A stretch of 64,000 nucleotides of DNA from a virus, in IMG/VR virus record IMGVR_UViG_3300036770_004723, positions 62,001 through 126,000 of that record; one strand, given 5' to 3'. The position numbers and the translations under genes are program-made. Shown one piece after another: positions 6,557-27,930 of this stretch. Each line of letters opens with the position of its first letter. Position 1 is the first letter of the stretch. The notes beneath the pieces are model-generated. The model was not told where the DNA came from and searched no databases. It saw only the letters and a program-made list of their open reading frames with translations.

Positions 6557-9424
6557 CTACCTCGAAGATTTTTTAACGCCTATATATTTAGTACTACCAC
6601 TAAATACGCGGTTGCCGCTAGAACTAGTCAATTTATCGTAACTGCCAAGTTTACGTACAACAGCTAACGGCGGTTGTTTAATTTTAGATTGCTCTACTTT
6701 CTTAGCCAATATTTCTTGATACTCTGGATGCACTAGTCCCCAATGACATAAAGCGCCTGCCCTCCAAAGATCATCTGTAAAGCCATCACCTTTATCAATA
6801 GTCTTTTTACCTACATCCACAACCGTAGCCATTTGAACAAGTAAATGTTCTACAGGTTTTCCGTCAAAACAATTTGGATATGAATCTATATTTATGTTTT
6901 CCATTATGTCTTTTATAGATGGATTTTCAATGTAAGGTATTTTTATGGCACCCAACTCTACGGCGGTTTTGACATCACACATGTCGTTATATTTTAAACT
7001 GTACTGCGCAGATATTTCTAGCCCAGGATAGCTTGCCTTTGCATCTTGCAGTAGTTTTATACTGTTCCATCTATCAGCTAATAATATTTTTACATTCCTG
7101 TGTTCAATAAGTGGAAGTATAACATCAGAAAATATACGAGTATGGCTAATTGGAATACCAGGTAAAGATATTATTTCTATCAGAATATCTAAATGTGGTG
7201 TTCCGTCATGTATAGATCCACATACAACTGCAAAGCTATTATTTGAATAACCAGCATCAATAGCTAACACACTAACACTATCATTGCGTTTTATATTAAG
7301 TAGCTCTACTGTTCTGTATTTTTCATCTTTAGATACACGATCAATTTTAGATCTGTACTTGACCCAATTCTTTTGCCCTGTCCTAACAGTTTCCTGTATA
7401 AGTCTGTGATTGGACATGAATGGGTTACTGGATAAACTAGGTTGTGCGCCAAAGTCGCGTTCAGCACCTATAGGGTCTTTACGATATTCTTCTTGAATAA
7501 GAGGTCCATCAAATGTAATATGTGGATTCATTTTCCATGTTGGTTTATGTAGACCTAAACTTTTTTTACTGCCTATACTTTGTTTATAAAGTTCCATGAT
7601 TTTATCACGGATGTTATTTGGAGAACTAACGTTTAACATATAACCTGTTAATAAGAATTGATCGTACCCAAGTGCCACCAATCTTTTTTCACTTTGCCTT
7701 GCAGTAGCTAAACTATTAGACATTGCTTTATAAACTTCGTGTGCGTTATCCTTAACTTTTTTAGTATCTCTATTACTATCAAACCAGCCTAATTCATCTA
7801 AAACACCTAAGAACCTGGTACGTCCACGTAAGGTTCTTTTGTCGGGTGTAGCAGGATAAAGCTGAAGATTTCGGTGCCTGTATTCAATAAATGTATCTTT
7901 AAGCTTTAATATTGTTTCACCGTACTTGCGCTCATACTTACGTAACAAAGAATGGTACGATTTAAACCAAGGACTGTTATTAATGTAACCTAAGAATGGT
8001 TGCCATAAGTTTTGTGTTGCTTGACCTAAAGTAAGGGCAAGGAAAGTTCCGTGCAGCACTTCGTTACTACGAATACCGAATAACTCTGTTGGTTTACCGC
8101 ACTTTAAAAACAAGTGCAGAACATAAGCGCTGATCATTGTAGATAACGCAGATTTTCCACTATTATGTGATTGTACTCCGCTTGTTATAAATTCCTGTGT
8201 TTTAGGCATAGTGAAATCATACATACGCTCAATGCGTTCTGTTTTGCCGGAAGAGATAACAGGCAAATAGTATGTTTTTTTACCTATATAAATAAGATTT
8301 GTCAAATAGTCCAGTGCCTTGTTATTAACAAGTTTAAAACTGTCTGAGTCTATTTCTACTATGGAGGGAAGTATACCTATATTCAAACTCAAGGAATACA
8401 ATGCGTAGGCTGCTTGTTTTGATATTATGCGTTGTTCTTTATAGTAACCTAAAAGAAATTCTTTAACGAAAGATAGCTTTAAATCAAAGAATTTTTTTAC
8501 TGTATTTTGATCTGGAGATTTCCCTAATTCTTGTATTTGACTAGCCGAAAGATCAATTGATTTAGTTCCAAAACTATTTAATCCTGTCACAACTTTTACA
8601 TAATCTTTTTCAGTAAGTTGCGTTATTGCTTTATATCCAAAATCTTTGGTCAGTACAGGATGTTCGTGTGTTCCACACAACTCAAATCCGTTTTTAAGTT
8701 TTAAATAGTAAACTTTCTCAGGATCTGTAACATATAGCTCTTTTGATTTTTCTTTGGATTTACCATTATGTACAGATAGTTCAAGCTTGTTATATCCAGT
8801 ATTTAATTCGTTTCCTATGTCACCTATGTATTTTAAGCCTTTATCCGTAAAAACTATTGTATCACCTGTAACACAACGCTGTCCGGCTACTACAGCTAAT
8901 TCATTATAAAAATTTAGTTCTCCATTAGCTATTAACTCAGATTTACGTGCGCCACATTTAGGGCAAATACCGTTACGTAATAAAGAAACTTTTTTTGTTA
9001 GATTGGACATTGGTTCATTTGCTTCATGTCCATCATCGCTAAACCATTTCATGTCTGTACAGGTAGGTCTTGGGCAATATTCGGCCATTAGTTTGATACC
9101 GATTATTGCTTGTTCTAGATAAGGAGGGGAATTAAGAAAGGCTTCGTCCATACAGAAATGGTAAAAATTTTTAGCTGTAGGCATTGAACTATCATCAATA
9201 CGTAGATCTCTAGATACAGGATGAAAAGCATCTAATTCATCCTGTATCATTTTTTGAATATTTAATAATTGCTTGTCATCAAGATCTTGTAGATGTAATT
9301 CTGGAACAACATCATCAAAATCTTTAACTACTTTAACGTCAGTAAGATCAATAAGTTTTGCAAATTCACTTCTAATAGATCTATTGTTGCTTATTTTTAT
9401 TTTCGGTGCCGGTTTCTTTTTCAT
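6557..9424 (-). CDS. Terminase large subunit, intein-containing precursor
   Basis: Predicted packaging ATPase/nuclease, 955 aa before splicing and 717 aa after. The Walker A motif is restored only when the intein (residues 184-421) is removed: AGQR joined to SGKSALST. Walker B is FLGVLDELGW after the intein. The C-terminal RNase H-like nuclease shows VLAIDAGYSNNSFAVV, LADRWNS and DDLWRAGALCHW, giving the expected Asp residues. A zinc-ribbon-like CPKCGARK lies just before the ATPase core. ATG with AGGAAAAAGA upstream; the first 44 bases overlap the upstream gene. A neighbouring portal gene supports the call. Without splicing the ATP-binding loop would be destroyed, so activity must depend on splicing. 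Confidence 0.92.
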   Translation of the reverse strand: MKKKPAPKIKISNNRSIRSEFAKLIDLTDVKVVKDFDDVVPELHLQDLDDKQLLNIQKMIQDELDAFHPVSRDLRIDDSSMPTAKNFYHFCMDEAFLNSPPYLEQAIIGIKLMAEYCPRPTCTDMKWFSDDGHEANEPMSNLTKKVSLLRNGICPKCGARKSELIANGELNFYNELAVVAGQRCVTGDTIVFTDKGLKYIGDIGNELNTGYNKLELSVHNGKSKEKSKELYVTDPEKVYYLKLKNGFELCGTHEHPVLTKDFGYKAITQLTEKDYVKVVTGLNSFGTKSIDLSASQIQELGKSPDQNTVKKFFDLKLSFVKEFLLGYYKEQRIISKQAAYALYSLSLNIGILPSIVEIDSDSFKLVNNKALDYLTNLIYIGKKTYYLPVISSGKTERIERMYDFTMPKTQEFITSGVQSHNSGKSALSTMISAYVLHLFLKCGKPTELFGIRSNEVLHGTFLALTLGQATQNLWQPFLGYINNSPWFKSYHSLLRKYERKYGETILKLKDTFIEYRHRNLQLYPATPDKRTLRGRTRFLGVLDELGWFDSNRDTKKVKDNAHEVYKAMSNSLATARQSEKRLVALGYDQFLLTGYMLNVSSPNNIRDKIMELYKQSIGSKKSLGLHKPTWKMNPHITFDGPLIQEEYRKDPIGAERDFGAQPSLSSNPFMSNHRLIQETVRTGQKNWVKYRSKIDRVSKDEKYRTVELLNIKRNDSVSVLAIDAGYSNNSFAVVCGSIHDGTPHLDILIEIISLPGIPISHTRIFSDVILPLIEHRNVKILLADRWNSIKLLQDAKASYPGLEISAQYSLKYNDMCDVKTAVELGAIKIPYIENPSIKDIMENINIDSYPNCFDGKPVEHLLVQMATVVDVGKKTIDKGDGFTDDLWRAGALCHWGLVHPEYQEILAKKVEQSKIKQPPLAVVRKLGSYDKLTSSSGNRVFSGSTKYIGVKKSSR
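8162..8875 (-). mobile_element. Intein in terminase Walker A loop (238 aa, endonuclease degenerate)
   Basis: In-frame intervening protein starting at Cys184 and ending at Asn421 of the precursor, followed by Ser as the +1 extein residue. Block A reads CVTGDTIVF, block B GTHEHPV, block F RMYDFTMPKTQEFITSG and block G VQSHN. About 140 residues lie between blocks B and F. FLLGYYKEQR there looks like a decayed LAGLIDADG helix, followed by the usual Leu-rich SLSLNIGI pattern. Only one such motif is seen and its acidic residue is lost, so the endonuclease is probably inactive. It splits the P-loop between R and S of GQRSGKS. Confidence 0.92.
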
Positions 9425-16132: not shown

Positions 16133-19100
16133 TCAGTTTTTAGCCTTTTTCTTTTTGGCCGATTTTTTAGTTTCGGCAATAGAAGCGTTCATTAGCTTTA
16201 TATACTTATTTACAGATTCACTCAATGAAGAGGAAATACGCGGATTAGGATTTTTTAAATCTTTCTTCCAACCTTTAATATCAGCCTGCGCAGTCTTTAG
16301 CTTATCTTTAATAGTATTAAGCTCTAGCTTAGCCAAGCTACGCAACTTTCTTTCAATAATATAGGTTGCGCGTTCTCGATCAATCTTTAATGTTTTTGCT
16401 GCGTAGGTATCTGGATCATCTTTGTCCAAAGCCTTTTTCATTACCTCCAATACTTTATCTTTATTTATAACAGCAAACATTTGTGTTTCATATTCCCAAA
16501 TGTCACGCTCACGTTTGCTAATAACGTTTTCGAGATATTTTTGTTCTAAAACTATGCGGTATTTTACCCATTGGGTAATGTAATTACTAAAGTTTACATA
16601 AGCAAACTTTGTTTTCGTTTCATCGACATGGTTAACTACTAAACCTAAATTGTAGAATTGACTACCAGTTAAAATCTTTTTAACTTTTTCAGCTAAATCA
16701 TACAGGCCGTCGTCGTCAACACCGCGTTTAGGTACAACGTAGTAATATGCTCCGAATGCGCCAGCGTTCGGTCGCTTATCACCACAGTCGCTTACCCAAC
16801 GACTTACTCCAGGTAATTCACGAATTTTATCTCGCTTCTTTTCAACCATTTCTTCAGATTGAAAACCAGGTGCATAAGAAACAATTTCAATGATTTTATT
16901 TTTATAGTCAATATTTATCTTAGGGCGATATTTTATTGCCTTAGCTCGACCTGTTTTAATAAAATCTTCTAGTTCTTCTTTGGTAGAAACACATTCAGAT
17001 CCAAACGGCGCATTTATTCTTAAATGCTTGACACATTCTTCATCCGTAACTTTGCCTTTATTCAAAGCAATTTCAACCAACTTTGCAACACCTTCAATTT
17101 CAAAACTTGGATTACAGGCACGAACGCCATAGGCAATACCACCTTCGTTACCAATCAATAACATTGTTGGAAGCAATGAAGGCAAATATAATGGAATATC
17201 TTCACTGTCATCGAAGTTTTTAATTCTGGGAACAACTTCAAGATAACCACTATCAAGTAAAAACATTTTTGCGTAGTCGGCTAATCGCACTTCGGTATTA
17301 TGTACAATCATACCGTTCGCTGTATAAGAATTACTCACAGGAACAGTGAGATCGTAAGTAGGTTCATCTCCTATATACTCGATACGTTTGATAGGCACTA
17401 AGAAATAGTTCTTATCTAAAATATTAGTCAGTTTATCCACAAAAGTAGGGAAATATTTCCCTACAAATTTACCGACCTGTGTTAGCCAAAGTTTTAAAGA
17501 TTCTAAAGTCAATGGCATACTGCGTCCAGATAGTCCATATAGCATAGAGGCTATGTACTTAGGAATTGGATTGCCTTCTTCATCTTCTTGTTTACTCAGA
17601 ATGTCTTCATAATAAGATCGCACAACTTCAGGTAAGAAACTTAGTTTCTGATTATCATACGCCGAATTGAGTACATTACCGCTTTTACGTTCAGATAAAA
17701 ATCCGATTTCAGATTGAAATCTGTCGTGCATTAGTTTACTGCATAGATAAAGAGTGTCTTTAGTTTGTGCAAAAGGTAATCCAAATTTAGATACTAGAAT
17801 CGTCTGAAGTTGATCTAAAAGTTTGGAACTTTTGGATGTATACGTAACGCCGGACGCATGTGCAGATCCATCTCCTTCAAATAGTGAGGAAAGAAATGAA
17901 ACCATCTCGACTTTACTCGACATAAGTACGCATAGCGGAACTTCTTTCTCACGAGCAACACACGGAAAAATTCCATTAGCAGATAAAAAAGAAATTAAAT
18001 GCGTACTATTTATAGTACATTGGGCATACGGACGTTTAGCCCAATTTATACCATCAGGCTCACGCCATGTGACTGATACATGTACGTTTTCAAATAAAGA
18101 TTCAGTCAATTCTACAAATAAATCAACCATATCTTTATCAGAATTCATAAATTGGACTGTGTGTTTAGTAATGCTACCTTCTGAAATAACCAAACCTAAC
18201 CAAGTGGCGAATTCCGAAGACATTTTCTTGGGGAGACCTAATATCTTCATGGAAGAACTTCTACCTTCAATATCAGGCTGGTTTAAAAGTTTTGATCCTT
18301 TAGTCCATTTAATTTTAGGATCTCTTTTATAGCAAACTATGTCTCCTTCAGAAATATCTTCAATAGTTTTCCAACTAAAGTCTAGATTAGAATCTAAAGT
18401 AAGTAAAGGTTCATTACTTGTACCTTTAATTTTACCTAAGCGAGTTTCAACTTCAAAGATCTCACGAACACCACTGTCTAACCAGTGTGTAGCTAATTCA
18501 ACACCATCACGCGATTCAACTTTCAAAGAAATTTCTAGTTTGCGTTTAGGTGTCTTGCCTAAGACTTCAGGTATACGTCCAATAGGAAGTAAGCCTAATT
18601 CAGAACTAACTAAAGTATCAGCGGTAAAACAATAACGCTGGGCGGCAGCATTATCAATCGGTGAACCCCAGTTTCCACGACCTTGCGCAAGTTTTGGAAA
18701 AGTATTTGCAATAGTAACTAACGCGCCATAGCAGGCGCTATTATGCGCAAGCATTACTCTTAAACTGTTATCTTGTGAATTACGTCCAGTAGCAATCAAC
18801 ATGTTTTCATTACCTTTAACAGTAAAATCATACATTGGAATTGCTTTTTTACTTTTAACCAGTTTAATACTACGTACTGCTAAATATCCAGCAGTAGGTA
18901 ATCCTTCAATATAATCTCCATGATGTGAGGCATGTTCAGATCTATCAAGAACTACGATATTGTCCGGTCTATTATTTTCACGATCACCGTCACTATGATG
19001 ATAAATTTCGTCAGTGTCTTTATCATCATACAAGTAAGCTCCAGACAACTCATGAAGATTACAAGATACATGCGTATTCAGCGAAAGTTTATGGTAAGAT

Positions 19101-19747
19101 TCTCTTAAGATCTGCCCACCTACCAATTGCTGACCTACCTCCAAATTTTCTGTACTAATCCATTTACCTTCAACAGACATAAATGGATGGTTGCCAGTTG
19201 CTTTTACTACATCACCATTAGAAAGTTCAATATGATAAATGTCTTTAGTAACTTGCCCTACTCTAAATGAGTGCGCTAAAGCAGGCTCAATTATTTGTTT
19301 TTCTTCATTGTAAGACCAGACCCATATAGGATCTGATCCTAAAAGGTTTTTAATTTTGCGTACAGATCCATCACAACCTAACACACGAGTATTACCAGAT
19401 AGGCAATCGCCATGAGGGTGGTATTTACCTATGGTATCACCAATAACACGGGCAGATTTTTTAAAATCTGATCCATGTAAATTAAGTTTGTGCATTGCAT
19501 AAATCAAATGCCTGTGTACAGGTTTAAGTCCATCACGAAATTCTGGAACAGCTCTATCTTTTACAACATACTCACCATATTCAAATAAATTTTCTTTTGC
19601 AAAAACAGACATCATTGCAATAGAAATTTTGCTCTGTTTAATCGTGTTAGGTAAAACAAAATCGGTTTTAGTTGCCGGAAGTTTTTTAACTTTTTTTGTT
19701 TTAATTTCACCCAGCTCTACTCTGCCAGTCTTTTTTGTTTTTTTCAT
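16133..19747 (-). CDS. Type II topoisomerase subunit A (GyrA / T4 gp52-like), precursor with two inteins
   Basis: Predicted DNA cleavage-religation subunit, 1204 aa precursor and about 537 aa after splicing. That is close to short phage subunits such as T4 gp52 and lacks the GyrA C-terminal wrapping domain. The breakage core shows GLKPVHRHLIYAM, then SARVIGDTIGKYHPHGD, then AAQRY followed after splicing by TEVRL; this Tyr is the catalytic residue in the family. Downstream GGIAYGV and a coiled-coil tower region follow. The start is ATG at 19747 (GGAAAAGTTT upstream). The Lys-rich N-terminal tail carries TGRVELG, the motif shared with three other phage proteins. A sigma70-type promoter with TATAAT lies 40 bases upstream. 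Both inteins cut residues needed for catalysis. Confidence 0.93.
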   Translation of the reverse strand: MKKTKKTGRVELGEIKTKKVKKLPATKTDFVLPNTIKQSKISIAMMSVFAKENLFEYGEYVVKDRAVPEFRDGLKPVHRHLIYAMHKLNLHGSDFKKSARVIGDTIGKYHPHGDCLSGNTRVLGCDGSVRKIKNLLGSDPIWVWSYNEEKQIIEPALAHSFRVGQVTKDIYHIELSNGDVVKATGNHPFMSVEGKWISTENLEVGQQLVGGQILRESYHKLSLNTHVSCNLHELSGAYLYDDKDTDEIYHHSDGDRENNRPDNIVVLDRSEHASHHGDYIEGLPTAGYLAVRSIKLVKSKKAIPMYDFTVKGNENMLIATGRNSQDNSLRVMLAHNSACYGALVTIANTFPKLAQGRGNWGSPIDNAAAQRYCFTADTLVSSELGLLPIGRIPEVLGKTPKRKLEISLKVESRDGVELATHWLDSGVREIFEVETRLGKIKGTSNEPLLTLDSNLDFSWKTIEDISEGDIVCYKRDPKIKWTKGSKLLNQPDIEGRSSSMKILGLPKKMSSEFATWLGLVISEGSITKHTVQFMNSDKDMVDLFVELTESLFENVHVSVTWREPDGINWAKRPYAQCTINSTHLISFLSANGIFPCVAREKEVPLCVLMSSKVEMVSFLSSLFEGDGSAHASGVTYTSKSSKLLDQLQTILVSKFGLPFAQTKDTLYLCSKLMHDRFQSEIGFLSERKSGNVLNSAYDNQKLSFLPEVVRSYYEDILSKQEDEEGNPIPKYIASMLYGLSGRSMPLTLESLKLWLTQVGKFVGKYFPTFVDKLTNILDKNYFLVPIKRIEYIGDEPTYDLTVPVSNSYTANGMIVHNTEVRLADYAKMFLLDSGYLEVVPRIKNFDDSEDIPLYLPSLLPTMLLIGNEGGIAYGVRACNPSFEIEGVAKLVEIALNKGKVTDEECVKHLRINAPFGSECVSTKEELEDFIKTGRAKAIKYRPKINIDYKNKIIEIVSYAPGFQSEEMVEKKRDKIRELPGVSRWVSDCGDKRPNAGAFGAYYYVVPKRGVDDDGLYDLAEKVKKILTGSQFYNLGLVVNHVDETKTKFAYVNFSNYITQWVKYRIVLEQKYLENVISKRERDIWEYETQMFAVINKDKVLEVMKKALDKDDPDTYAAKTLKIDRERATYIIERKLRSLAKLELNTIKDKLKTAQADIKGWKKDLKNPNPRISSSLSESVNKYIKLMNASIAETKKSAKKKKAKN
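17297..18631 (-). mobile_element. GyrA intein 2 (445 aa, LAGLIDADG endonuclease), after the catalytic Tyr
   Basis: Begins with CFTADTLV directly after AAQRY and ends VSNSYTANGMIVHN before TEVRL. The site between Tyr and Thr is the one used by mycobacterial GyrA inteins. Two LAGLIDADG helices are visible, WLGLVISEGS and FLSSLFEGDGS, spaced about 100 residues apart with acidic residues kept, so the homing endonuclease may be active. Block B is likely GTSNEPLLT (no His, an atypical block B). Block F is PTYDLTVPVSNSYTANG. Confidence 0.93.
18740..19405 (-). mobile_element. GyrA intein 1 (222 aa, HNH endonuclease), in the GKYHPHGD-S motif
   Basis: Begins CLSGNTRVL after GKYHPHGD and ends NSLRVMLAHN before SACYGALV. 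Block B is ATGNHPFMS and block F IPMYDFTVKGNENMLIA. Between them a compact HNH motif replaces the common LAGLIDADG domain: IYHHSDGDRENNRPDNIVV followed by SEHASHH. All the expected His and Asn residues are present, so nuclease activity is plausible. Confidence 0.93.
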
Positions 19748-19782
19748 AAACTTTTCCAGTTCCGTAGATAAATACGTCAAGC

Positions 19783-19841
19783 ATTATACGGGATTAAAAT
19801 TTGAAAATCAATACAAGGCTTTTGACACACCTCGATCAGTT
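19783..19841 (-). promoter_or_regulatory. Sigma70-type promoter with conserved upstream block (GyrA-like gene)
   Basis: On the minus strand: AACTGATCGAGGTGTGTCAA block (19820-19841), TTGATT (19806-19811), 17-bp spacer, TATAAT (19783-19788). One of six copies of this layout in the window. Confidence 0.75.
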
Positions 19842-20260
19842 CACAGTAAACTTGGTAAACCTTTAGGCAATATTACTTTTAAAAAAGCTGTATACAGTGG
19901 ACGATCAAAAGGAGAATTTGAAGAAATATAAGAAATATACGATTTCATATCAGGTAGCTTCAAACAGCTCAAAGTTTTTTCATTTGAAACTTTTATAGCT
20001 TCTTCAGGAATTAAAACAGAATTAGTGTTCAACCAAGCAAGACCTTCTGTGAAGACACGCGGAACCGAACCAATCAATTCATTTGGAGGATATTTTATAA
20101 AAAATCCTTGACTATCTATAATTGTCAAGGCTGCTTGATGTAGTTTTGTATCAGCTAAACATTCAAGCTTTGAATTGTATTCTACTTTAGATTTTACCCA
20201 TGACACATCGTTCTGTAAAACGCCTTGCGAAAAAAACATGTATACGTATTTTTTACTCAT
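19841..20260 (-). CDS. Hypothetical protein (139 aa)
   Basis: Unrecognised. The start is ATG at 20260 with a strong GAGGTG site; the longer TTG reading is rejected. Its stop codon abuts the conserved upstream block of the GyrA promoter. No motif seen. Confidence 0.65.
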   Translation of the reverse strand: MSKKYVYMFFSQGVLQNDVSWVKSKVEYNSKLECLADTKLHQAALTIIDSQGFFIKYPPNELIGSVPRVFTEGLAWLNTNSVLIPEEAIKVSNEKTLSCLKLPDMKSYISYISSNSPFDRPLYTAFLKVILPKGLPSLL

Positions 20261-20268
20261 TAAACACC

Positions 20269-20655
20269 TCAACAAATATTGTATAAACTATTTTGAGTGA
20301 ATGGAAGAAGTGCCATCTTTTTCTTAAAGATTTCTCTTGATCCGTAATTATTTTTTATGTTAGCTCTAATTGATTTAAGATCAAGCAGTGTTTTCGTATC
20401 CCAATCACTAGCTTCAATACTAATGCGATCAAGTACATTTATTATAATGCTGGATACTCTGTTTACTTTTTTAGGCCATACACATTTTATTATATAACCA
20501 CTGTCATCAAGAATAATAAAAGAAAGTTTTTTAACTCTGTGATCTAAATGATTTACCTTCAACCAAAAAACTGAAAGACTACTATTTTGCATGTAGTCTG
20601 GATTCATTTTAAACGGAGTAAAACTCAGATCCACAAGTAAATAGTAGTTTTTCAT
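20269..20655 (-). CDS. Hypothetical protein (128 aa)
   Basis: Unrecognised, basic, mixed alpha/beta protein. ATG with AAAAGAG upstream, seven bases after the GyrB C-terminal fragment. It sits between the two topoisomerase subunit genes and is probably co-transcribed with them. Confidence 0.65.
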   Translation of the reverse strand: MKNYYLLVDLSFTPFKMNPDYMQNSSLSVFWLKVNHLDHRVKKLSFIILDDSGYIIKCVWPKKVNRVSSIIINVLDRISIEASDWDTKTLLDLKSIRANIKNNYGSREIFKKKMALLPFTQNSLYNIC

Positions 20656-20662
20656 AACTCTT

Positions 20663-21403
20663 TTAATCCGATTCAGTTAGACCTAATAGTTTTCTACGTG
20701 CTGAAGCATCTTCACCAACAACAGATTTAAAGAAATCTAGATCTTGTTTTACACTATCATATTCAATCTGAATAAGATTACGGTTAGTTGGATCGAACGC
20801 AATCGCCTCTAAAAGATCTGCGTTAGTTTCTCCCCAACCTTTAGCACGGAATACACTTCCCTTAGGTGCATTCTTAGGCAGCTGCTTTAAACATTCCTCA
20901 AATGAATCACCGCTGTAGTGTTTGCCATCAACCAAAGCATTGTACAAACTTGCTTGAACAACAAACAAACGTCCTTCCCGAATGAAATCTGGAAGCAACT
21001 TATAAAACAGTGCAATCAATAGTGTATTGATGTGTGAACCATCTGCGTCAGCATCTGCAAGTAACAAGCAAACTGCTGCACGTAGATTCTTGGTGCTGAA
21101 TGTTGGATTATCTGCTTTAACATCCAAACTTTTTATATCAACACCGAGACTTGCCAAAATATCTTGAATACGATCATTAGAAAGCAACTTAGGTAAACTA
21201 ACGTTTAAAGCATTCGGAATTTTACCACCGAGTTTCAATACTTCTTGATTGTAACCACGCGCATTCTTAGCGGAATTATGAACTACCGCTCCATTACCTA
21301 AACAGAAATTATGATTCTGCGTTACAGTTAGATCGTATACAGGTACAGGATTATCCAGCTTAATAGTCCGGATCGACCTTACCTTTATTGTTGATGGTGT
21401 CAC
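20663..21403 (-). CDS. Type II topoisomerase subunit B, C-terminal fragment (Int-C plus TOPRIM C-extein)
   Basis: Second half of a fractured GyrB-like subunit. The first 43 residues are a C-terminal split-intein piece ending GNGAVVHN; the rest starts SAKNARGYNQEVLKLGG, which continues the GyrB sequence EGDSAGG-SAK. The TOPRIM metal motif LLADADADGSHINTLL is here. The only start with a good site is GTG at 21403 (AAGGGG six bases upstream); a TTG at 21421 is the alternative. Joined by trans-splicing to the 22636-25809 product, it would give a subunit of roughly 660 aa. It ends soon after TOPRIM, like short phage large subunits. Confidence 0.9.
   Translation of the reverse strand: MTPSTIKVRSIRTIKLDNPVPVYDLTVTQNHNFCLGNGAVVHNSAKNARGYNQEVLKLGGKIPNALNVSLPKLLSNDRIQDILASLGVDIKSLDVKADNPTFSTKNLRAAVCLLLADADADGSHINTLLIALFYKLLPDFIREGRLFVVQASLYNALVDGKHYSGDSFEECLKQLPKNAPKGSVFRAKGWGETNADLLEAIAFDPTNRNLIQIEYDSVKQDLDFFKSVVGEDASARRKLLGLTESD
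21275..21403 (-). mobile_element. Split intein, C-terminal half (GyrB TOPRIM site)
   Basis: 43 residues with block F VPVYDLTVTQNHNF and block G GNGAVVHN, then Ser +1. This is the length usual for natural split-intein C halves (about 35-50 residues). No endonuclease is inside. Confidence 0.88.
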
Positions 21404-21455
21404 ATGAATCCCCTTTAACAATGATAATTTAGACTTTTAATAAATAGGAGTTTAT

Positions 21456-22661
21456 ATGAACCTAATCAAGCTACATGCACAAGTATTAAAATTTCCAAAA
21501 GAGCTTAAAAAGATTCTGACTATGTTTATATCAAACAGAAACAGACGAGGTTGTAATGCTTTGCTTAATAAGCCTAATTCCAATATAGGTAAATTACTAC
21601 GTGATTCGTTTAAGTCCCCTATAAATAAGATTGCTATTTCAGATCTACATACAGCGTTAACAGGTGAAGCTTCTGCCGTATGTTTAAGAAAAGGATGTAC
21701 AAACAAAACAAATTACTGCTATGCCGACCGCAAATTTCGAGCGTGCTGTTCTAAGAAATGTGCAAACATATCAGGTTATACTCAAGCTAAACGTGAAGAA
21801 GTAATGCTTGATCGTCACGGTGTAAAAAACCCATACCAAATGCCTTCTACTAAGAAGAAAATTGAGGAAACTAATCTCAAAAAATATGGCGTAAAAAATC
21901 CTTCTTCGTCTGAAAAAGTAAAGCTTAAACGTAAGAAAACTTTTCAGGATCGTTATGGTATAAATTCACCAATGGAAAGTTCTGAATTTAAAGACAAACA
22001 AAGAGCCGTACTTTTAGAAAATCATGGTGTAGATAATCCAATGAAGTCTTCTAAAATTCGATCTGAAATGTCAGAAAGATTTAGAATGAAGCATGGTGTA
22101 ACTAATCCAATGCAAGTTCAAGAATTCGTAACTAAATCTCAGAAAAACTACGAATTGGCTTGCATTAAAAAGTATGGAGTACGTAATGCAATGCAGTCTC
22201 CAGAAATTCTTAAAATATGGTCCAGTGCGCAATCAAAAAGAACTGAAATTTCACTATGTGGTACAACACTAAATCTACAAGGCTATGAAGAACATGCGTT
22301 AAATTGTCTTTACCGATCAAAACCTTTCAAGTCAATAACTAATGATCCTACAAAGATGCCTCAGGTCAATTACACAATTAACGGTAAGTCGAGGGTGTAT
22401 CTGCCTGATGCTGCAATCAAAATGTTTGATGAATCTATAAGAGTGATCGAAGTAAAAAGCTGGTACACACTATCAAAAAAAGACAACTACTACAAATTTC
22501 GTGCAGCTACTAAATTTTATAACTCAATAGGTGTCGATTTTATTCTTGTAATCGTAGACGACAAAACAGGCGCATTAAAGATCTTATTTAATCCATATAA
22601 AGGGTTAAGATCTTTAATACGCGCAGCGAAAGTTCTTAGCTCAGGCCGTCGAACTTGGTAA
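21456..22661 (+). CDS. Free-standing homing endonuclease, PD-(D/E)XK type, between the gyrB halves
   Basis: 401 aa on the strand opposite to its surroundings. Residues ~120-260 hold six tandem units of the form Y/H-G-V-x-N-P (HGVKNPYQMP, YGVKNPSSSE, YGINSPMESS, HGVDNPMKSS, HGVTNPMQVQ, YGVRNAMQSP), a DNA-binding repeat often seen in phage mobile nucleases. A Cys cluster (CLRKGC, CCSKKC) precedes them. The C-terminal nuclease shows GYEEHALNCL, RVYLPDAAI and VIEVKSWYT, fitting E...PD...ExK. ATG with TAGGAG five bases upstream. The 3' end overlaps the Int-N gene by 26 bases tail to tail. It probably homes to intein-free gyrB. Confidence 0.85.
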   Translation: MNLIKLHAQVLKFPKELKKILTMFISNRNRRGCNALLNKPNSNIGKLLRDSFKSPINKIAISDLHTALTGEASAVCLRKGCTNKTNYCYADRKFRACCSKKCANISGYTQAKREEVMLDRHGVKNPYQMPSTKKKIEETNLKKYGVKNPSSSEKVKLKRKKTFQDRYGINSPMESSEFKDKQRAVLLENHGVDNPMKSSKIRSEMSERFRMKHGVTNPMQVQEFVTKSQKNYELACIKKYGVRNAMQSPEILKIWSSAQSKRTEISLCGTTLNLQGYEEHALNCLYRSKPFKSITNDPTKMPQVNYTINGKSRVYLPDAAIKMFDESIRVIEVKSWYTLSKKDNYYKFRAATKFYNSIGVDFILVIVDDKTGALKILFNPYKGLRSLIRAAKVLSSGRRTW

Positions 22662-25600
22662 TGTGATCTTCTACTGTAAGATCTTTTGCTTTAGTATATT
22701 CACTTCCAGTCAACCACAGATGATCTGGTGTACACAGCCAAACACTGTTATCTTCCAAAGTAACCTCAATAAGTTCATCCACGTATTTAGTTATACGTGG
22801 ATGTTCTAGTAGTGATATCTCAAAAGCGTCTTTTTCAATCGAATAGCTAACTCCTTCACAAACAAAACCTCTTTCATACATATATACAAGTTCTTCGAAA
22901 GTAATTGTATTCCCGTTCGACAATTTTACAGGTGTACTTGCAATAAAACAACCTCCCGCAGAATCGCCCTCCACCAAGTATAATTCGCGTTCATGAGGTT
23001 TGCAGTTTGGTGCTTCATAGAGTTTGACAGGTAAACTGCCTTGACTCTTTTTGACCTCGCTCATTCCTTTCATGACTTTTGCAAGATCTTCACGCGAAGC
23101 AGCAACTTCAGATGCACGTTTAATAATTGCTTTTGCCAGACTTTTGTTTTTCTTAAAGAATTCCGTTAAAGGCTCTGTTAAAAGATCCGTAACTTCATTG
23201 TCAATTTTACTTACAAGTTTATCCTTTACCTGTCCGCTAAACTGAGCGCTGTTCATTTTCCAGTTTATTAAGGCAACGGCACCAACATACAAATCATCTG
23301 GTTTAAATGCGCCAGATTTTTTAGGCATATAATCTTTTAAGGCTTTCGACATAGCTGCACGGAAACCTGTTACGTGTGTACCATGATCAACTGTTGGGCT
23401 ACTGTTTACGTAGCTACGAAATAAATCTGTGTCGTGGTAATTGGACCACTGAATAGCTACCTTTAATCTGCCTGAATCGAATTCGAAAGGCTTACCTATA
23501 CCTTCAAGCTCACGATCTTGTAGAATGTTTCCAATTATACCTGATAAACCTTTATCATTGTAAAATTCTTTGATTTTATTTGTTTCAAGATCGTGTAAAG
23601 TCAAAAGAAGTTTAGGGTTCATGGTACTCATGAACTTTAAATAATCTTCAACTATAGTCGGCTGTAAAATAGCCTGAGTGTATGTTTTTAATTTTTTTGT
23701 TCGGTTAGCGTCAACGCTGATCACACTTTGGTCAGGAACAAAGCGAACAATAGATCCTAAACGTTTATACTTTTTCTTGATAGTAGCTAGATAACCAAAT
23801 TGTTTTTTCAGAAAAGAATCAGAAACTTTTTTAACTTCAGTTATTGCTTTACCACAACTAAAGCCTTGGTAATACCATTGATTTTCACGGCAAGTCCAAA
23901 CTTCAAATTCTTTACTTATAGCATTCAGCGCAGAAATCCCGACACCATGAGTATTACCAACAAACACACCACTAGCTAATAAGTAGGTATGATCATTTTC
24001 AACACTCAGCCCGTATACAGGAACCTTGTCAACTTTTTTGATTTCAACAGAAACAACTTTATGGTTACGTTCTTGAGCTAATGATGCAAGTTCTGAATTC
24101 GAAGAACACGAATCAAAATATTTAGCCAATTCAACACCAGTTTCCCAGTTCGGACTGCCAGCTGTACGATTGTTTTCATACCAATCTTTATCTATATGTC
24201 CTACTTCTGACAAGCAAGCATTCAATGTAATCAAAAAACGAGAATACGCAGTTTGTTTACGTCTGTCTGTGTAATCAGAAACTTTTTGTTTGGCTTCTAA
24301 TCTACGTTGTTTGGCTTCAAGCTTAATTCTTCTGTTTTCAGCCTCTACACCAGTATATAGAAACACATCTGGATTAAGTCCGTGAGCAACACAGTCAACA
24401 AAACGTCCAATCGTAATATATTTTAAAACGGAAGCAGCATTTAAAGTTTTAGCTGATTTTAAAATGGCATAAATTTTGTTGAAGTCTAAGTCCAATAATT
24501 CTTCCTGAGTTAATTTTTGATCAAAAACAAAATTCAAAGCTTTACCTACAATTCGTTTTGCAGTCATGAACTCTGAGTTATCAAAAATCATTGAATTGGC
24601 AGATAGACCAACTTCGTAATCTAACGAATCAAAAAATCTCTGGCCAATTTCTTGTTTCTTATCAAGTCGATCTTGGAAATAAGCAACAGTATCTTCTACG
24701 TACTTTCTGAAAGTAGCAGGCTTATCAAAATAATATTTTAAAGTTGACCAGCTAGGAGCGCCATGAAACCTGTTAGCTTCGTAAAGCTCTTTATTAATTC
24801 GTCCAAATTTTACGAGACAACGGCTACCAATTTTAATTGCTTTGCCTGTAACTTGCTTGAATATAAAATCTGGATCTGTATTTAGCTCTGTAAGCATTTC
24901 AGATTTTAAATGAGCAGTTTCTTTTACGAAATCCATCCAAGCAAACCATTTATCAGGATGTTCTTCATAATGTTCTTTCTGTGTAATCGCTTTTAAATTT
25001 TCATAACGATTATCAGTCTTATCTTCGTTTTCGTGGTGAACGTGAAGATTATCAATATCTTCACCGTTATACTCCATGACGAATCTGTGAACACGACCTA
25101 ATTCACGGCTAACTAAATAGCCATCTTTATCTTGTTTAAAATCCAATGATCTCAAGCTCATACCAGCTTTTAGTTTTTGAGCCTGAACTTTCTTTAAACC
25201 TGTTGTGTAGAATGGATGGTCAACTGTACATTCAATTGTTTCACCGTTATCAAGTTCAATAACTGCAAGTTGATCGACATACTTAGTTATTTGGACATTG
25301 TAACAGGCGTTGATTCCGACTTCACCTGTTTTAGGATCTAAACTAAACACATCGAAAGGTTTAGCGTCATCTTCAAAACGTGAATACAATTCTTCAAAAG
25401 TTGGAGTAGTTCCATCAAGCAACCTGACACGAGTTGATCCTACAAAACAGCCACCAGATGTTTCATAAGCACTACTGTCAAATTTGCCTCCAGCATGTAG
25501 CTCAGTCAGGATTAATGTCAATGCACTAATCTTTTTACCGTCGATCAACTTATCGCCTACAGGGATACCTTGCGCACAATCTGCAATAACGTATTCACCT

Positions 25601-25809
25601 ACTTTATTATTATAAGCAACGTAAATAGCATTGTTACGGCCAGCTTCGTATTCGTCACGGCTGTTTTCAACAGGCTCTTTGATAGCCCGAAACATCATGG
25701 CGTCACCTAATTCACCTAAATACATCGCGACATTGCCACGAACTTTATCTAGACCTAAAAGGGCTTTGATGTCATCTTCATTATATGTTTTAGTTTTTAA
25801 CTTTGCCAT
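22636..25809 (-). CDS. Type II topoisomerase subunit B, N-terminal fragment with one intein and Int-N
   Basis: ATPase half of a GyrB/T4 gp39-like subunit. GHKL motifs: EPVENSRDEYEAGRN (catalytic Glu/Asn helix), ADCAQGIPVG, and LHAGGKFDSSAYETSGG joined after splicing to THGVGISALN. The transducer region follows, with the QTK-loop equivalent probably near GQVKDKLVSK, then LYLVEGDSAGG, the start of TOPRIM. An internal intein occupies residues 122-620 (counted from the TTG-extended reading). The last 104 residues form a split-intein N half ending at a stop codon, not GyrB sequence. The start is ATG at 25809. Activity needs both cis- and trans-splicing. Confidence 0.93.
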   Translation of the reverse strand: MAKLKTKTYNEDDIKALLGLDKVRGNVAMYLGELGDAMMFRAIKEPVENSRDEYEAGRNNAIYVAYNNKVGEYVIADCAQGIPVGDKLIDGKKISALTLILTELHAGGKFDSSAYETSGGCFVGSTRVRLLDGTTPTFEELYSRFEDDAKPFDVFSLDPKTGEVGINACYNVQITKYVDQLAVIELDNGETIECTVDHPFYTTGLKKVQAQKLKAGMSLRSLDFKQDKDGYLVSRELGRVHRFVMEYNGEDIDNLHVHHENEDKTDNRYENLKAITQKEHYEEHPDKWFAWMDFVKETAHLKSEMLTELNTDPDFIFKQVTGKAIKIGSRCLVKFGRINKELYEANRFHGAPSWSTLKYYFDKPATFRKYVEDTVAYFQDRLDKKQEIGQRFFDSLDYEVGLSANSMIFDNSEFMTAKRIVGKALNFVFDQKLTQEELLDLDFNKIYAILKSAKTLNAASVLKYITIGRFVDCVAHGLNPDVFLYTGVEAENRRIKLEAKQRRLEAKQKVSDYTDRRKQTAYSRFLITLNACLSEVGHIDKDWYENNRTAGSPNWETGVELAKYFDSCSSNSELASLAQERNHKVVSVEIKKVDKVPVYGLSVENDHTYLLASGVFVGNTHGVGISALNAISKEFEVWTCRENQWYYQGFSCGKAITEVKKVSDSFLKKQFGYLATIKKKYKRLGSIVRFVPDQSVISVDANRTKKLKTYTQAILQPTIVEDYLKFMSTMNPKLLLTLHDLETNKIKEFYNDKGLSGIIGNILQDRELEGIGKPFEFDSGRLKVAIQWSNYHDTDLFRSYVNSSPTVDHGTHVTGFRAAMSKALKDYMPKKSGAFKPDDLYVGAVALINWKMNSAQFSGQVKDKLVSKIDNEVTDLLTEPLTEFFKKNKSLAKAIIKRASEVAASREDLAKVMKGMSEVKKSQGSLPVKLYEAPNCKPHERELYLVEGDSAGGCFIASTPVKLSNGNTITFEELVYMYERGFVCEGVSYSIEKDAFEISLLEHPRITKYVDELIEVTLEDNSVWLCTPDHLWLTGSEYTKAKDLTVEDHITKFDGLS
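22639..22950 (-). mobile_element. Split intein, N-terminal half (GyrB TOPRIM site)
   Basis: 104 residues beginning CFIASTPVKLSNGN (block A) after EGDSAGG, with block B LCTPDHLWL and ending KFDGLS at the stop codon. Length and blocks match natural split-intein N halves (about 100 residues). Its partner is at 21275-21403. Confidence 0.9.
23953..25449 (-). mobile_element. GyrB intein in the GHKL G-motif (499 aa, HNH plus helix repeats)
   Basis: Begins CFVGSTRVRL after ETSGG and ends HTYLLASGVFVGN before THGVG. Block B is CTVDHPFYT. An HNH nuclease is embedded: VHRFVMEYNGEDIDNLHVHH, then NRYENLKAI and EHYEEH. Further on two units resemble homing-endonuclease-associated repeats: YEANRFHGAPSWSTLKYYF and YENNRTAGSPNWETGVELAK. 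The penultimate residue is Gly rather than the usual His. Some inteins tolerate this change, but cleavage may be slower. Confidence 0.9.
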
Positions 25810-25814
25810 CAAGG

Positions 25815-26174
25815 TTAACCTTCTATAAATCTTTCACTGAGAATTCTAATGCAAGTCTGTGTGACTATTTCATTTTTTTCTGGAAGAATATTTGAATTCA
25901 AATTCAAAACAAGTTCAGCATATTCTTTTAATATATCAGGATCAGTAATATCATTTATGGCTATTTCTGAAAAATTACTATCCATTGCTGTTACTTTAAA
26001 CAGCATTTTAGAATTAAGGCCATCACCATTTAAAGTAATAAGGAAAAAACAAGAATTTCTTTTTACTACACGAAAAATTTCCTTTTTTAATTCTTCGATA
26101 AGTTCTATGTGTTTACTTATAAAACTATGTGCTTCCAGTTCGGCAGCTTTGACCTTTCCTATTAACCAAGACAT
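25815..26174 (-). CDS. Hypothetical protein (119 aa)
   Basis: Unrecognised helical protein, five bases upstream of the GyrB-like start. Its own start overlaps the end of the 140-aa gene by 13 bases. No Cys, membrane or nucleotide-binding motif seen. Confidence 0.62.
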   Translation of the reverse strand: MSWLIGKVKAAELEAHSFISKHIELIEELKKEIFRVVKRNSCFFLITLNGDGLNSKMLFKVTAMDSNFSEIAINDITDPDILKEYAELVLNLNSNILPEKNEIVTQTCIRILSERFIEG

Positions 26175-26584
26175 ATATTTTTGCCTATACGAGAAATAAG
26201 GTTTTTAGTTTTTTGTGTTACGTCGTTAATTATTTTTTCAGCGTTGTATCCACCGTCCTCAAGTCTTTTTACTAAAGGATTAAGAATATCTATAGCCGCT
26301 AAGAATCCGTTTTGTTTTTGTTCTAAAAGGGATAACTCAAGAGCGTAGGTAGATACAACAAATTCATGGTAGCATTTATCTTCTGGATCTAAATTAGATC
26401 CATTTATTAATCTAATAGATTTTAGATTATCTTGATTTAGACGAAAGATTGCTTTCTCTGTTTCTAGCAGATTAAGTTTATTTAAAAGTAAATGGTTTGA
26501 TAGAGTGGAGTAAATAGAGGAAATTTCCATAGAAGAGTTCAATATACAGTCTATATCATTAGAAAGCCCTAACAAATTTTCCAT
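26162..26584 (-). CDS. Hypothetical protein (140 aa)
   Basis: Unrecognised, helical and Leu-rich; residues 40-100 could form a short coiled coil. ATG preceded by GGGAGAAAAATT. First gene after a strong bidirectional hairpin, so a new transcript probably starts upstream. Confidence 0.65.
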   Translation of the reverse strand: MENLLGLSNDIDCILNSSMEISSIYSTLSNHLLLNKLNLLETEKAIFRLNQDNLKSIRLINGSNLDPEDKCYHEFVVSTYALELSLLEQKQNGFLAAIDILNPLVKRLEDGGYNAEKIINDVTQKTKNLISRIGKNICLG

Positions 26585-26618
26585 AATTTTTCTCCCGAAA
26601 AAAGATTAGTACAAGCAC

Positions 26619-26652
26619 AAATAGCCAGTAAATTCGAATTTACTGGCTATTT
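26619..26652. terminator. Bidirectional terminator hairpin
   Basis: A 34-base perfect palindrome with AAATAGCCAGTAAATTC as its left arm, followed by GTTTTAT on the plus strand and TTGTGC on the minus strand. It lies after the H1-like gene. Confidence 0.65.
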
Positions 26653-26662
26653 GTTTTATAGA

Positions 26663-27097
26663 TTAATTATCAAAAGCGAATTCGTTTGATTTCTTTTTTG
26701 ATTTTTTATCGGCCTTTGGATCGGCTTTTTTGTCGGCTTTTTTGTCGGCTTTTTTGTCAGCTTTAGCTGGAGCTTTCTTGTCAGCTACTTTTTTATCAGC
26801 AGCTTTCTTGTCAGCTTTAGCTGGAGCTTTTTTGTCAGCTTTAGCTGGAGCTTTTTTGTCAGCTTTAGCTGGAGCTTTTTTGTCGGCTACTTTTTTATCA
26901 GCAGCTTTTTTATCGCCTTTTGCTGGAGCAGCAACAACGCCAGCTAAAGAATCGGCTTGCAGTTTTGTAGCAGCAGCCAAAGCGTCAGCTTGATCAGCTT
27001 GTTTAGCCAATGCTTCGGCTTGTTTACGTAAAGCAGCTGCTTGTTTAGAAGAAGCGTTCGCAGATTTATTTAAGGCAGAAATGGCTTGTTTACTCAT
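26663..27097 (-). CDS. Histone H1-like Lys/Ala-rich protein (144 aa)
   Basis: Low-complexity basic protein. Residues ~1-55 form an Ala/Gln/Lys helix with heptads (SKQAAALRKQAEALAKQA). Residues ~60-135 are repeats of ADKKAPAKADKK and ADKKVADKK, like the tails of eukaryotic H1 and bacterial H1-like/AlgP proteins. Non-specific DNA binding or condensation is the obvious guess. The DNA repeats (26700-26920) are near-identical, so the tail length may vary between relatives by slippage. Hairpins stand on both sides, so it is likely a single-gene transcript. Confidence 0.75.
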   Translation of the reverse strand: MSKQAISALNKSANASSKQAAALRKQAEALAKQADQADALAAATKLQADSLAGVVAAPAKGDKKAADKKVADKKAPAKADKKAPAKADKKAPAKADKKAADKKVADKKAPAKADKKADKKADKKADPKADKKSKKKSNEFAFDN

Positions 27098-27183: not shown

Positions 27184-27930
27184 TTATTCTTCTTCTGACC
27201 ATTCTTCCTCTTCTTCATCTTCATCTTCATCTTCGTCAGATGAATAATTTTCTTCTAACCACCCACGAAGTTTATCTTCTGTCTTCAAGTATTTCGCCGG
27301 TACTTCAAGATCATTGTCTTTTACAAACTTTTTCAGTTCTTTTAAATCCATTTCGTCGAAGTCAGGAGCGTCATCTTCCTCTTCCTCTTCTTCGTCTTCA
27401 TCTTCGTCAGATGAATAATTTTCTTGCAAGAATTCACGAAGATCATCTTCGCTTTTTACTTTCTTAGGAACTTCAATATCATTATCTTTCGCAAACTTTT
27501 TCAGTTCCTTGAGGTTCATTTCGTCGAAGTCAGGAGCGTCATCTTCCTCTTCCTCTTCTTCGTCTTCGTCTTCATCCGAAGCAAATTCTTCTTGTAAGAA
27601 TTCACGTAAGGCGTCTTCGGTTTTTGCTTTCTTTGGAATTTCGATTTCGTTATCTTTACAGAATTTCTTCATTTCCTTGAGGTTCATTTCGTCGAAGTCA
27701 GGAACTTCCTCTTCCTCTTCTTCGTCTTCATCTGAATCTTCCTCTTCTTCCTCTTCCTCTTCTTCCTCTTCGTCTTTCTTTTTCTTTGACTTAGAAGGTG
27801 TACCTGAAGATCCAATTACAGCAGAAACTTCAGCAGAAGTAACAGCACCTTCTTCAATTGCTACGCCTAAAAGTTCCAATAAAGCCGATGCAACTGTTTT
27901 GCCTGAAGATGCTTTTGATTTTTTAGCCAT
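27184..27930 (-). CDS. Acidic protein with three SAP/HeH-like repeats (248 aa)
   Basis: Three copies of a ~35-residue helix-extended-helix unit, of the form DFDEMNLKELKKFAKDNDIE followed by VPKK, a short spacer and DLREFLQE, are joined by runs of 15-20 Asp/Glu. The unit resembles SAP, LEM-like HeH or Rho N-terminal domains, which bind nucleic acid. The N-terminal ~60 residues are unrelated. Copies at about residues 80-115, 137-172 and 194-230 differ by substitutions, so this is an old duplication. The acidic linkers could offset the basic H1-like protein encoded next door. A late promoter motif lies upstream at 28012. Confidence 0.75.
   Translation of the reverse strand: MAKKSKASSGKTVASALLELLGVAIEEGAVTSAEVSAVIGSSGTPSKSKKKKDEEEEEEEEEEEDSDEDEEEEEEVPDFDEMNLKEMKKFCKDNEIEIPKKAKTEDALREFLQEEFASDEDEDEEEEEEDDAPDFDEMNLKELKKFAKDNDIEVPKKVKSEDDLREFLQENYSSDEDEDEEEEEEDDAPDFDEMDLKELKKFVKDNDLEVPAKYLKTEDKLRGWLEENYSSDEDEDEDEEEEEWSEEE

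What the first reader, a model, noticed from the sequence alone, without database searches (positions are those of the whole stretch)
20663..25809. gyrB broken in two at TOPRIM, rejoined by a split intein, with a homing endonuclease gene in the break
Seen directly: one open frame ends LYLVEGDSAGG followed by a 104-aa Int-N with blocks A and B. A second frame starts with a 43-aa Int-C ending GAVVHN, then SAKNARGYN, the next part of GyrB. Between them, on the opposite strand, is a 401-aa nuclease with six YGVxNP repeats and a PD...ExK core. Known: fractured genes with split inteins and nearby endonucleases have been described from environmental phage DNA, and T4 splits its topoisomerase large subunit near the same region by a mobile nuclease gene. 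I know of no described GyrB case of this exact kind.
Basis: partly seen in the sequence, partly recalled or inferred. Interest (0 to 1): 0.92.

Follow-up and report, generated by a model that had tools for sequence, protein, structure and literature searches.

The report
Phage topoisomerase gene split, rejoined by intein
A giant phage carries its topoisomerase (gyrB-like) gene in two pieces that a split intein should weld back together as protein, with a DNA-cutting "homing" gene sitting in the break; the same arrangement occurs in a second, distant giant phage, so it is a real mobile cassette and a new example of a known kind of broken gene.

Summary
In a 286,584-bp virus record, the GyrB/ParE-like topoisomerase gene is two ORFs. 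One ends VEGDSAGG plus a 104-aa Int-N. The other begins with a 43-aa Int-C (GTG start, good Shine-Dalgarno) ending GAVVHN, then SAKNARG and the rest of GyrB. Between them, antisense, is a 401-aa nuclease gene.

The same cassette (gene order, orientation and 26-bp tail overlap included) lies in a second jumbo-phage contig at about 45-50% identity. Int-N, Int-C, nuclease and exteins are all equally constrained there. A third phage has the split intein without the nuclease. A syntenic relative (76-81% identical GyrB) has intact gyrB, the empty site. The joined halves align along their whole length with a contiguous 148-aa intein at the same site.

Best explanation: a "fractured gene". A contiguous intein was invaded at its endonuclease position by a PD-(D/E)XK homing endonuclease gene, and trans-splicing restores GyrB. 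Splicing and homing are inferred, not shown.

It is a new member of a known class (fractured genes; MIJ3 PolB; T4 mobA as analogue). GyrB as host and the antisense nuclease appear new. A likely copy of the target-site flank upstream of Int-C supplies its ribosome-binding site.

The parts
22636..25809 (-). GyrB-N ORF: ATPase and transducer domains and the start of TOPRIM (...LYLVEGDSAGG), ending in Int-N; 1,057 aa from ATG 25809
   Evidence: DNA_gyraseB Pfam 5.4e-27, phrog_543 3.3e-75
23953..25449 (-). 499-aa contiguous (cis) intein with an HNH match, in the GyrB ATPase region, site TSGG/THGVG; absent from the L002 relative
22639..22950 (-). Int-N, 104 aa; block A C1, block B CTPDH (T74, H77); stop codon 22636-22638
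   Evidence: aligns with Int-N of G002 (51%) and G001 (41%)
21456..22661 (+). Antisense homing-endonuclease gene, 401 aa: Cys-rich segment (C76-C102), six (Y/H)GVxNP repeats (DUF7487), C-terminal PD-(D/E)XK nuclease
   Evidence: SD GGAG before ATG
21816..22232 (+). The six (Y/H)G(V/I)x(N/S) repeats, presumed DNA-binding
22239..22658 (+). PD-(D/E)XK nuclease domain, TnsA-like: D318, E332, K334
   Evidence: Foldseek: Cas4-type, ExoV, Hjc, TnsA
22636..22661 (.). 26-bp tail-to-tail overlap of the nuclease gene 3' end and the Int-N 3' end; 18 bp of it (GGCCGTCGAACTTGGTAA) identical in G002
21275..21403 (-). Int-C, 43 aa (GTG start); block F VYDLTVTQNHNF, block G GAVVHN, then Ser+1
20663..21274 (-). 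GyrB-C: rest of TOPRIM (SAKNARGYN...DADADGSH) and C-terminal part
21406..21429 (-). Likely copy (relic) of the GyrB-N exon end (...ELxLVEGDS), directly upstream of Int-C; contains the Int-C Shine-Dalgarno AAAGGGG
21417..21431 (-). 15-bp TAAATTATCATTGTT, identical in G002 at the same position; no other exact copy in either record

Best explanation
This is a fractured topoisomerase gene. An intein inserted at the TOPRIM motif of a phage GyrB/ParE-like gene (VEGDSAGG/SAK) was broken in two, at the place where inteins normally carry an endonuclease domain, by a free-standing homing-endonuclease gene lying in the opposite orientation. GyrB-N-IntN and IntC-GyrB-C are made as separate proteins. The intein halves associate and splice in trans (Cys1, block-B Thr/His, block-F Asp/His, His-Asn, Ser+1), giving a 657-aa GyrB once the cis intein is removed too. 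The nuclease binds DNA through its (Y/H)GVxNP repeats and cuts intein-free gyrB at or near GDSAGG/SAK with its PD-(D/E)XK domain, and repair copies the whole cassette into the rival phage. Shown: anatomy, conserved catalytic residues, the same cassette in a second phage, the empty site, purifying selection on all pieces. Inferred: trans-splicing, cleavage site, homing, and the order of events (contiguous intein first, nuclease second).
For: Anatomy and intein motifs. Same cassette in G002 (IMGVR_UViG_3300011226_000001), with the same antisense nuclease and 26-bp overlap. Split intein without nuclease in G001. Contiguous inteins at the same site in L020 and L030, colinear with the joined halves. 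Intein-free syntenic gyrB and gyrA in L002/L003. Codon positions 1/2/3 identical between window and G002: Int-N .63/.69/.38, Int-C .63/.77/.30, nuclease .58/.67/.33, GyrB-C .57/.71/.33, so all are equally constrained. Best solved relative of the joined intein: NrdJ-1 split intein. An Int-C-based search of bacterial genomes returned only DnaE-type split-intein C-fragments, nearly all cyanobacterial. Int-N about 100 aa and Int-C about 40 aa is the usual natural split, at the endonuclease position (PMC11923092). Nuclease: PHROG 'homing endonuclease' 7e-16; TnsA-like Pfam over cut-off in G002 and L035; PD-(D/E)XK fold matches.
Against: No splicing or cleavage was measured. Intein, nuclease and extein identities between window and G002 are alike (44-56% against 45-50%), so recent horizontal homing is not visible; old vertical inheritance with loss in the L002 lineage fits as well. 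G001 is split without a nuclease, so the nuclease may not be what broke the gene there. The cut site is not mapped.
Confidence: 0.85

Rival explanations
1. The halves are not ligated. They assemble non-covalently into a working topoisomerase, as T4 gp39 and gp60 do, and the intein pieces are decayed remnants.
For: A mobile nuclease gene splits the T4 topoisomerase large subunit, and such split enzymes can work without ligation (PMC2988022).
Against: All splicing residues are intact in three independent split pairs, and Int-N/Int-C are as constrained as GyrB. Unspliced tails would sit inside TOPRIM, next to the metal-binding EGDSA motif.
Confidence: 0.07
2. The split intein works, but the nuclease no longer homes to this site. 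It is inactive, targets another site, or hitch-hikes as an ordinary free-standing endonuclease.
For: G001 is split without a nuclease. Close intact relatives of the nuclease are rare: only G002 matches over its whole length among viral contigs.
Against: D318/E332/K334, the Cys pattern and the repeats are conserved, with protein-level constraint equal to GyrB over about 45% identity. The tail overlap with Int-N is kept in both phages.
Confidence: 0.2
3. Assembly chimera or a dead, frameshifted gene.
For: The record is a metagenome-derived virus contig with no reads to inspect.
Against: The identical arrangement lies in a contig from another sample at about 45-50% protein identity. Both ORFs are open with no internal stops, and the Int-C ORF has a start codon with a Shine-Dalgarno sequence.
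Confidence: 0.02

Closest known systems
Fractured genes with split inteins and a nuclease gene in the break (Dassa et al. 2009, Nucleic Acids Res. 37:2560; paper not held, known here through citing papers and memory)
   Same: A conserved replication-enzyme gene in two ORFs, a split intein at the break, and a free-standing homing endonuclease gene between Int-N and Int-C, in phage DNA.
   Different: Host gene is GyrB; the nuclease is antisense (convergent with Int-N) and TnsA-like rather than Vsr-like. Four other fractured viral loci seen here (L063, L064, L067, L069) have the gene in the gap on the same strand.
Pseudomonas jumbo phage vB_PaeM_MIJ3 PolB split intein with an HNH endonuclease (PMC6892783)
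   Same: Jumbo phage; split intein with an endonuclease ORF between the halves.
   Different: DNA polymerase B; HNH enzyme.
Phage T4 mobA and the split topoisomerase large subunit (PMC2988022)
   Same: A mobile endonuclease gene splits the type IIA topoisomerase large-subunit gene.
   Different: HNH enzyme, no intein, subunits not ligated.
Contiguous GyrB inteins at GDSAGG/SAK (L020, L030 here; bacterial GyrB mini-inteins, e.g. PMC6390638, whose insertion site was not checked)
   Same: Same host gene family; for L020 and L030 the same insertion site and alignable splicing domains.
   Different: One polypeptide, cis splicing.
Fractured class II RNR locus L069
   Same: Split intein with a TnsA-like PD-(D/E)XK endonuclease gene in the gap.
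   Different: Host gene RNR, nuclease on the same strand, different N-terminal part; no target-site relic detected.

Membership tests
Fractured gene (split intein + nuclease gene in the break) | Conserved enzyme gene in two ORFs that together cover the intact protein | tested here: met
   Joined exteins colinear with the 660-aa L002 GyrB at 76-81% identity
Fractured gene (split intein + nuclease gene in the break) | Int-N at the end of one ORF and Int-C at the start of the other, from one intein | tested here: met
Fractured gene (split intein + nuclease gene in the break) | Free-standing endonuclease gene between them | tested here: met
Fractured gene (split intein + nuclease gene in the break) | Protein trans-splicing occurs | not testable with these tools
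   Catalytic residues intact only
Homing endonuclease of the PD-(D/E)XK superfamily | Catalytic D...ExK in the PD-(D/E)XK core fold | tested here: met
   D318, E332, K334 invariant. Model pLDDT 74, pTM 0.67; Foldseek best E 7e-5 to a Cas4-type nuclease, TnsA TM 0.54 at rmsd 3.5
Homing endonuclease of the PD-(D/E)XK superfamily | Cleaves the cassette-free allele and drives its own copying | not testable with these tools
   Empty allele exists; cleavage not shown
Vsr-like homing endonuclease family of Dassa 2009 | Vsr-related nuclease core | tested here: not met
   No Vsr-type Pfam match; TnsA-like match instead, sub-threshold in the window and over cut-off in G002. Shares only the DUF7487 repeats with enzymes such as L036 and L038, whose C-terminal cores differ
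GyrB intein allele at GDSAGG/SAK | Same insertion site as contiguous GyrB inteins | tested here: met
   L020 and L030. Identity with the Synechocystis GyrB intein site rests on memory and was not tested
T4 mobA-type split | HNH enzyme, no intein | tested here: not met

The most novel reading that the evidence does not exclude
The cassette carries a copy of the end of its own target exon (about 24 nt, ...ELxLVEGDS) directly upstream of Int-C. That copy became the ribosome-binding site of the orphaned C-terminal half, and may also be an operator for the divergently transcribed nuclease, which would bind it as a mimic of its homing site. This would be a self-contained way in which a homing nuclease gene breaks an essential gene and at once re-equips its downstream half for translation.
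Probability: 0.35. Interest if true: 0.68.

Novelty: new member of a known kind. Interest (0 to 1): 0.5.

Why it matters
It extends fractured genes to the type IIA topoisomerase large subunit, at a catalytic TOPRIM motif where T4 shows an intein-free version of the same accident. Four states of one site can now be compared: empty (L002), contiguous intein (L030), split without nuclease (G001), split with nuclease (window, G002). That makes the origin of natural split inteins testable. It also yields three new natural GyrB split-intein pairs, possible tools for protein ligation.

Tried and rejected
RNA intron or known RNA element in the break: Rfam search of 19500-26700 gave only sub-threshold chance matches. 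Defence system: no PADLOC hit. Nuclease sequence search of PDB: nothing. Close relatives of the nuclease by single-sequence scan: none; by alignment: 13, only G002 full-length. Full-length nuclease model: low confidence (pLDDT 63, pTM 0.29), its matches not used alone. 15-bp element as a general phage promoter: rejected, no other exact copy in either record. Target-site relic in G001 and in four other fractured loci: not found. Cyanobacterial genomes for contiguous GyrB inteins by pattern: none in the three searched. Dassa 2009 is not in the library.

Full report
Source. The window is bases 62001-126000 of a 286,584-bp IMG/VR virus record. It encodes terminase, portal, DnaB-like helicase, UvsX/RecA-like recombinase and both topoisomerase IIA subunits, so it is a jumbo tailed phage. 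'GyrB' is used loosely. The protein matches GyrB and ParE models and PHROG 'DNA topoisomerase II large subunit', and the partner subunit is only about 548 aa without its inteins, so the enzyme may be a phage topoisomerase II rather than a gyrase.

Observation. ORF 22636-25809(-) holds GyrB up to VEGDSAGG followed by a 104-aa Int-N. ORF 20663-21403(-) begins at a GTG with the Shine-Dalgarno AAAGGGG, encodes a 43-aa Int-C ending GAVVHN, then SAKNARGYN and the rest of GyrB. Intein models hit above cut-off. Between the two ORFs lies a 401-aa ORF on the other strand, 21456-22661(+), with its own Shine-Dalgarno and six (Y/H)GVxNP-type repeats.

Do the two halves belong to one intein? Yes. Joined, they align end to end with a contiguous 148-aa intein at the same GDSAGG/SAK site in L030 (51/149 identities, shuffle z 32.7), and with two other split pairs at that site, G002 (51%) and G001 (44%). 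The best solved relative is the NrdJ-1 split intein, which from memory is one of the fractured-gene inteins. An Int-C-based search of 84,980 bacterial and archaeal genomes returned only DnaE-type split-intein C-fragments, nearly all cyanobacterial. Catalytic residues (Cys1, block B T-x-x-H, block F D and H, H-N, Ser/Thr+1) are kept in all three pairs. Int-N about 100 aa and Int-C about 40 aa is the usual natural split (PMC11923092).

The cassette recurs. Contig IMGVR_UViG_3300011226_000001 (268,224 bp, G002, locus L032) has the same order: GyrB-N+IntN, antisense nuclease (402 aa, 44% identical, both ending SSGRRTW), IntC+GyrB-C. The nuclease and Int-N tails overlap by 26 bp in both, with 18 bp identical. 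Its gyrA is intact. G001 (IMGVR_UViG_3300018414_000006) has the split intein with a 176-nt gap and no nuclease. In viral contigs, pattern scans of both junctions and an Int-C search found no further split gyrB. L002/L003, syntenic relatives 76-81% identical in GyrB, have uninterrupted gyrB (660 aa) and gyrA, so the empty site is documented.

Constraint. Between window and G002, codon positions 1/2/3 are identical at .63/.69/.38 (Int-N).63/.77/.30 (Int-C).58/.67/.33 (nuclease) and .57/.71/.33 (GyrB-C). Third positions are near saturation, while amino acids are held equally in all pieces. Neither the intein nor the nuclease is decaying. The equal identities also mean that recent horizontal transfer is not demonstrated.

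The nuclease. The middle is DUF7487 (3e-35), the repeat module shared with many phage homing endonucleases (PHROG 3339, 7e-16). The C-terminal part is a TnsA-like PD-(D/E)XK domain: sub-threshold in the window, over cut-off in G002 (3.9e-9) and in a free-standing relative, L035 (1.3e-7). D318, E332 and K334 are invariant. A model of this domain (pLDDT 74, pTM 0.67) finds almost only PD-(D/E)XK nucleases among its best matches: Cas4-type, ExoV, Hjc, TnsA. Other repeat-bearing relatives (L036, L038 and others) have different C-terminal cores, so repeats and cores are mixed modularly.

Upstream of Int-C. A 15-bp stretch, TAAATTATCATTGTT, is identical in window and G002 just before the Int-C Shine-Dalgarno, with no other exact copy in either record. 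It belongs to a stretch that resembles the end of the GyrB-N exon. Window relic against G002 exon: 18/22 ungapped, 0 of 2000 shuffles. Window relic against its own exon: 26 of 2000. G002 relic against its own exon: 39 of 2000. In G002 it reads IIIVVEGDS. In the window it is the best non-self match of the exon end on either strand of the 64 kb. It was not seen in G001 or in four other fractured loci. I read it as a probable target-flank copy that supplied the ribosome-binding site; the operator idea is speculation.

Precedents. The class is known: fractured genes (Dassa 2009, not readable here), MIJ3 PolB (PMC6892783) and, without an intein, T4 mobA (PMC2988022). In the same scans I saw fractured RNR (L063, L064, L069) and a topoisomerase A-subunit gene (L061, L067); four of these five have a gene in the gap on the same strand, and in L069 it too has a TnsA-like core. 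The literature searches available gave no phage GyrB split intein, but the library is partial.

Verdict. New member of a known kind, with three unusual traits: GyrB host, antisense nuclease overlapping Int-N, and a probable target-site relic. Trans-splicing and homing remain inferences with clear, ordinary tests.

Noticed in passing
window 16133-19780 (-): The partner subunit gene (GyrA/ParC-like) carries two cis inteins: 222 aa with an HNH match at YHPHGD/SACYG (18740-19405) and 445 aa with a LAGLIDADG match at AAQRY/TEVRL (17297-18631). With the two in GyrB, all four are absent from L002.
   Followed up: partly
window 8162-8875 (-): Terminase large subunit has a 238-aa cis intein immediately before its SGKSAL (Walker A) motif.
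   Followed up: partly
G000:C1 about 34,385 (locus L015, 1-1596): A long extracellular-type phage protein ends in a Hint-like domain (CFIYGTLIDM...FVHN) with almost nothing after it, so it may self-cleave rather than splice.
   Followed up: no
L061 5142-7296 and L067 162-2799: Topoisomerase A-subunit gene fractured by a split intein at GYHHGD/SS in two viral contigs, one (L061) with ankyrin-repeat-like genes beside it; L067 has a candidate endonuclease gene in the gap, L061 none.
   Followed up: partly
L069 3563-7302; L063 3925-7593; L064 110-3525: Fractured ribonucleotide reductase genes with a gene on the same strand in the gap: TnsA-like PD-(D/E)XK in L069, a PD...ExK-looking one in L063, a GIY-YIG-looking one in L064.
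   Followed up: partly
L018 6857-8146: G001 GyrB-C, besides the Int-C at its start, carries a second contiguous mini-intein after DPDGP, next to the TOPRIM metal-binding aspartates.
   Followed up: no
L032 3231-3472 (-): In G002 a short acidic ORF (MKIYVSLSVDTD...NQNPD) lies between the nuclease and Int-C; absent from the window.
   Followed up: no
window 27184-27930 and 26663-27097 (-): Two low-complexity genes next to gyrB, one of repeated acidic/PDFDEMNLKELKKF units and one of KADKKA repeats, conserved in position in L002 (similar genes near gyrB in G002).
   Followed up: no
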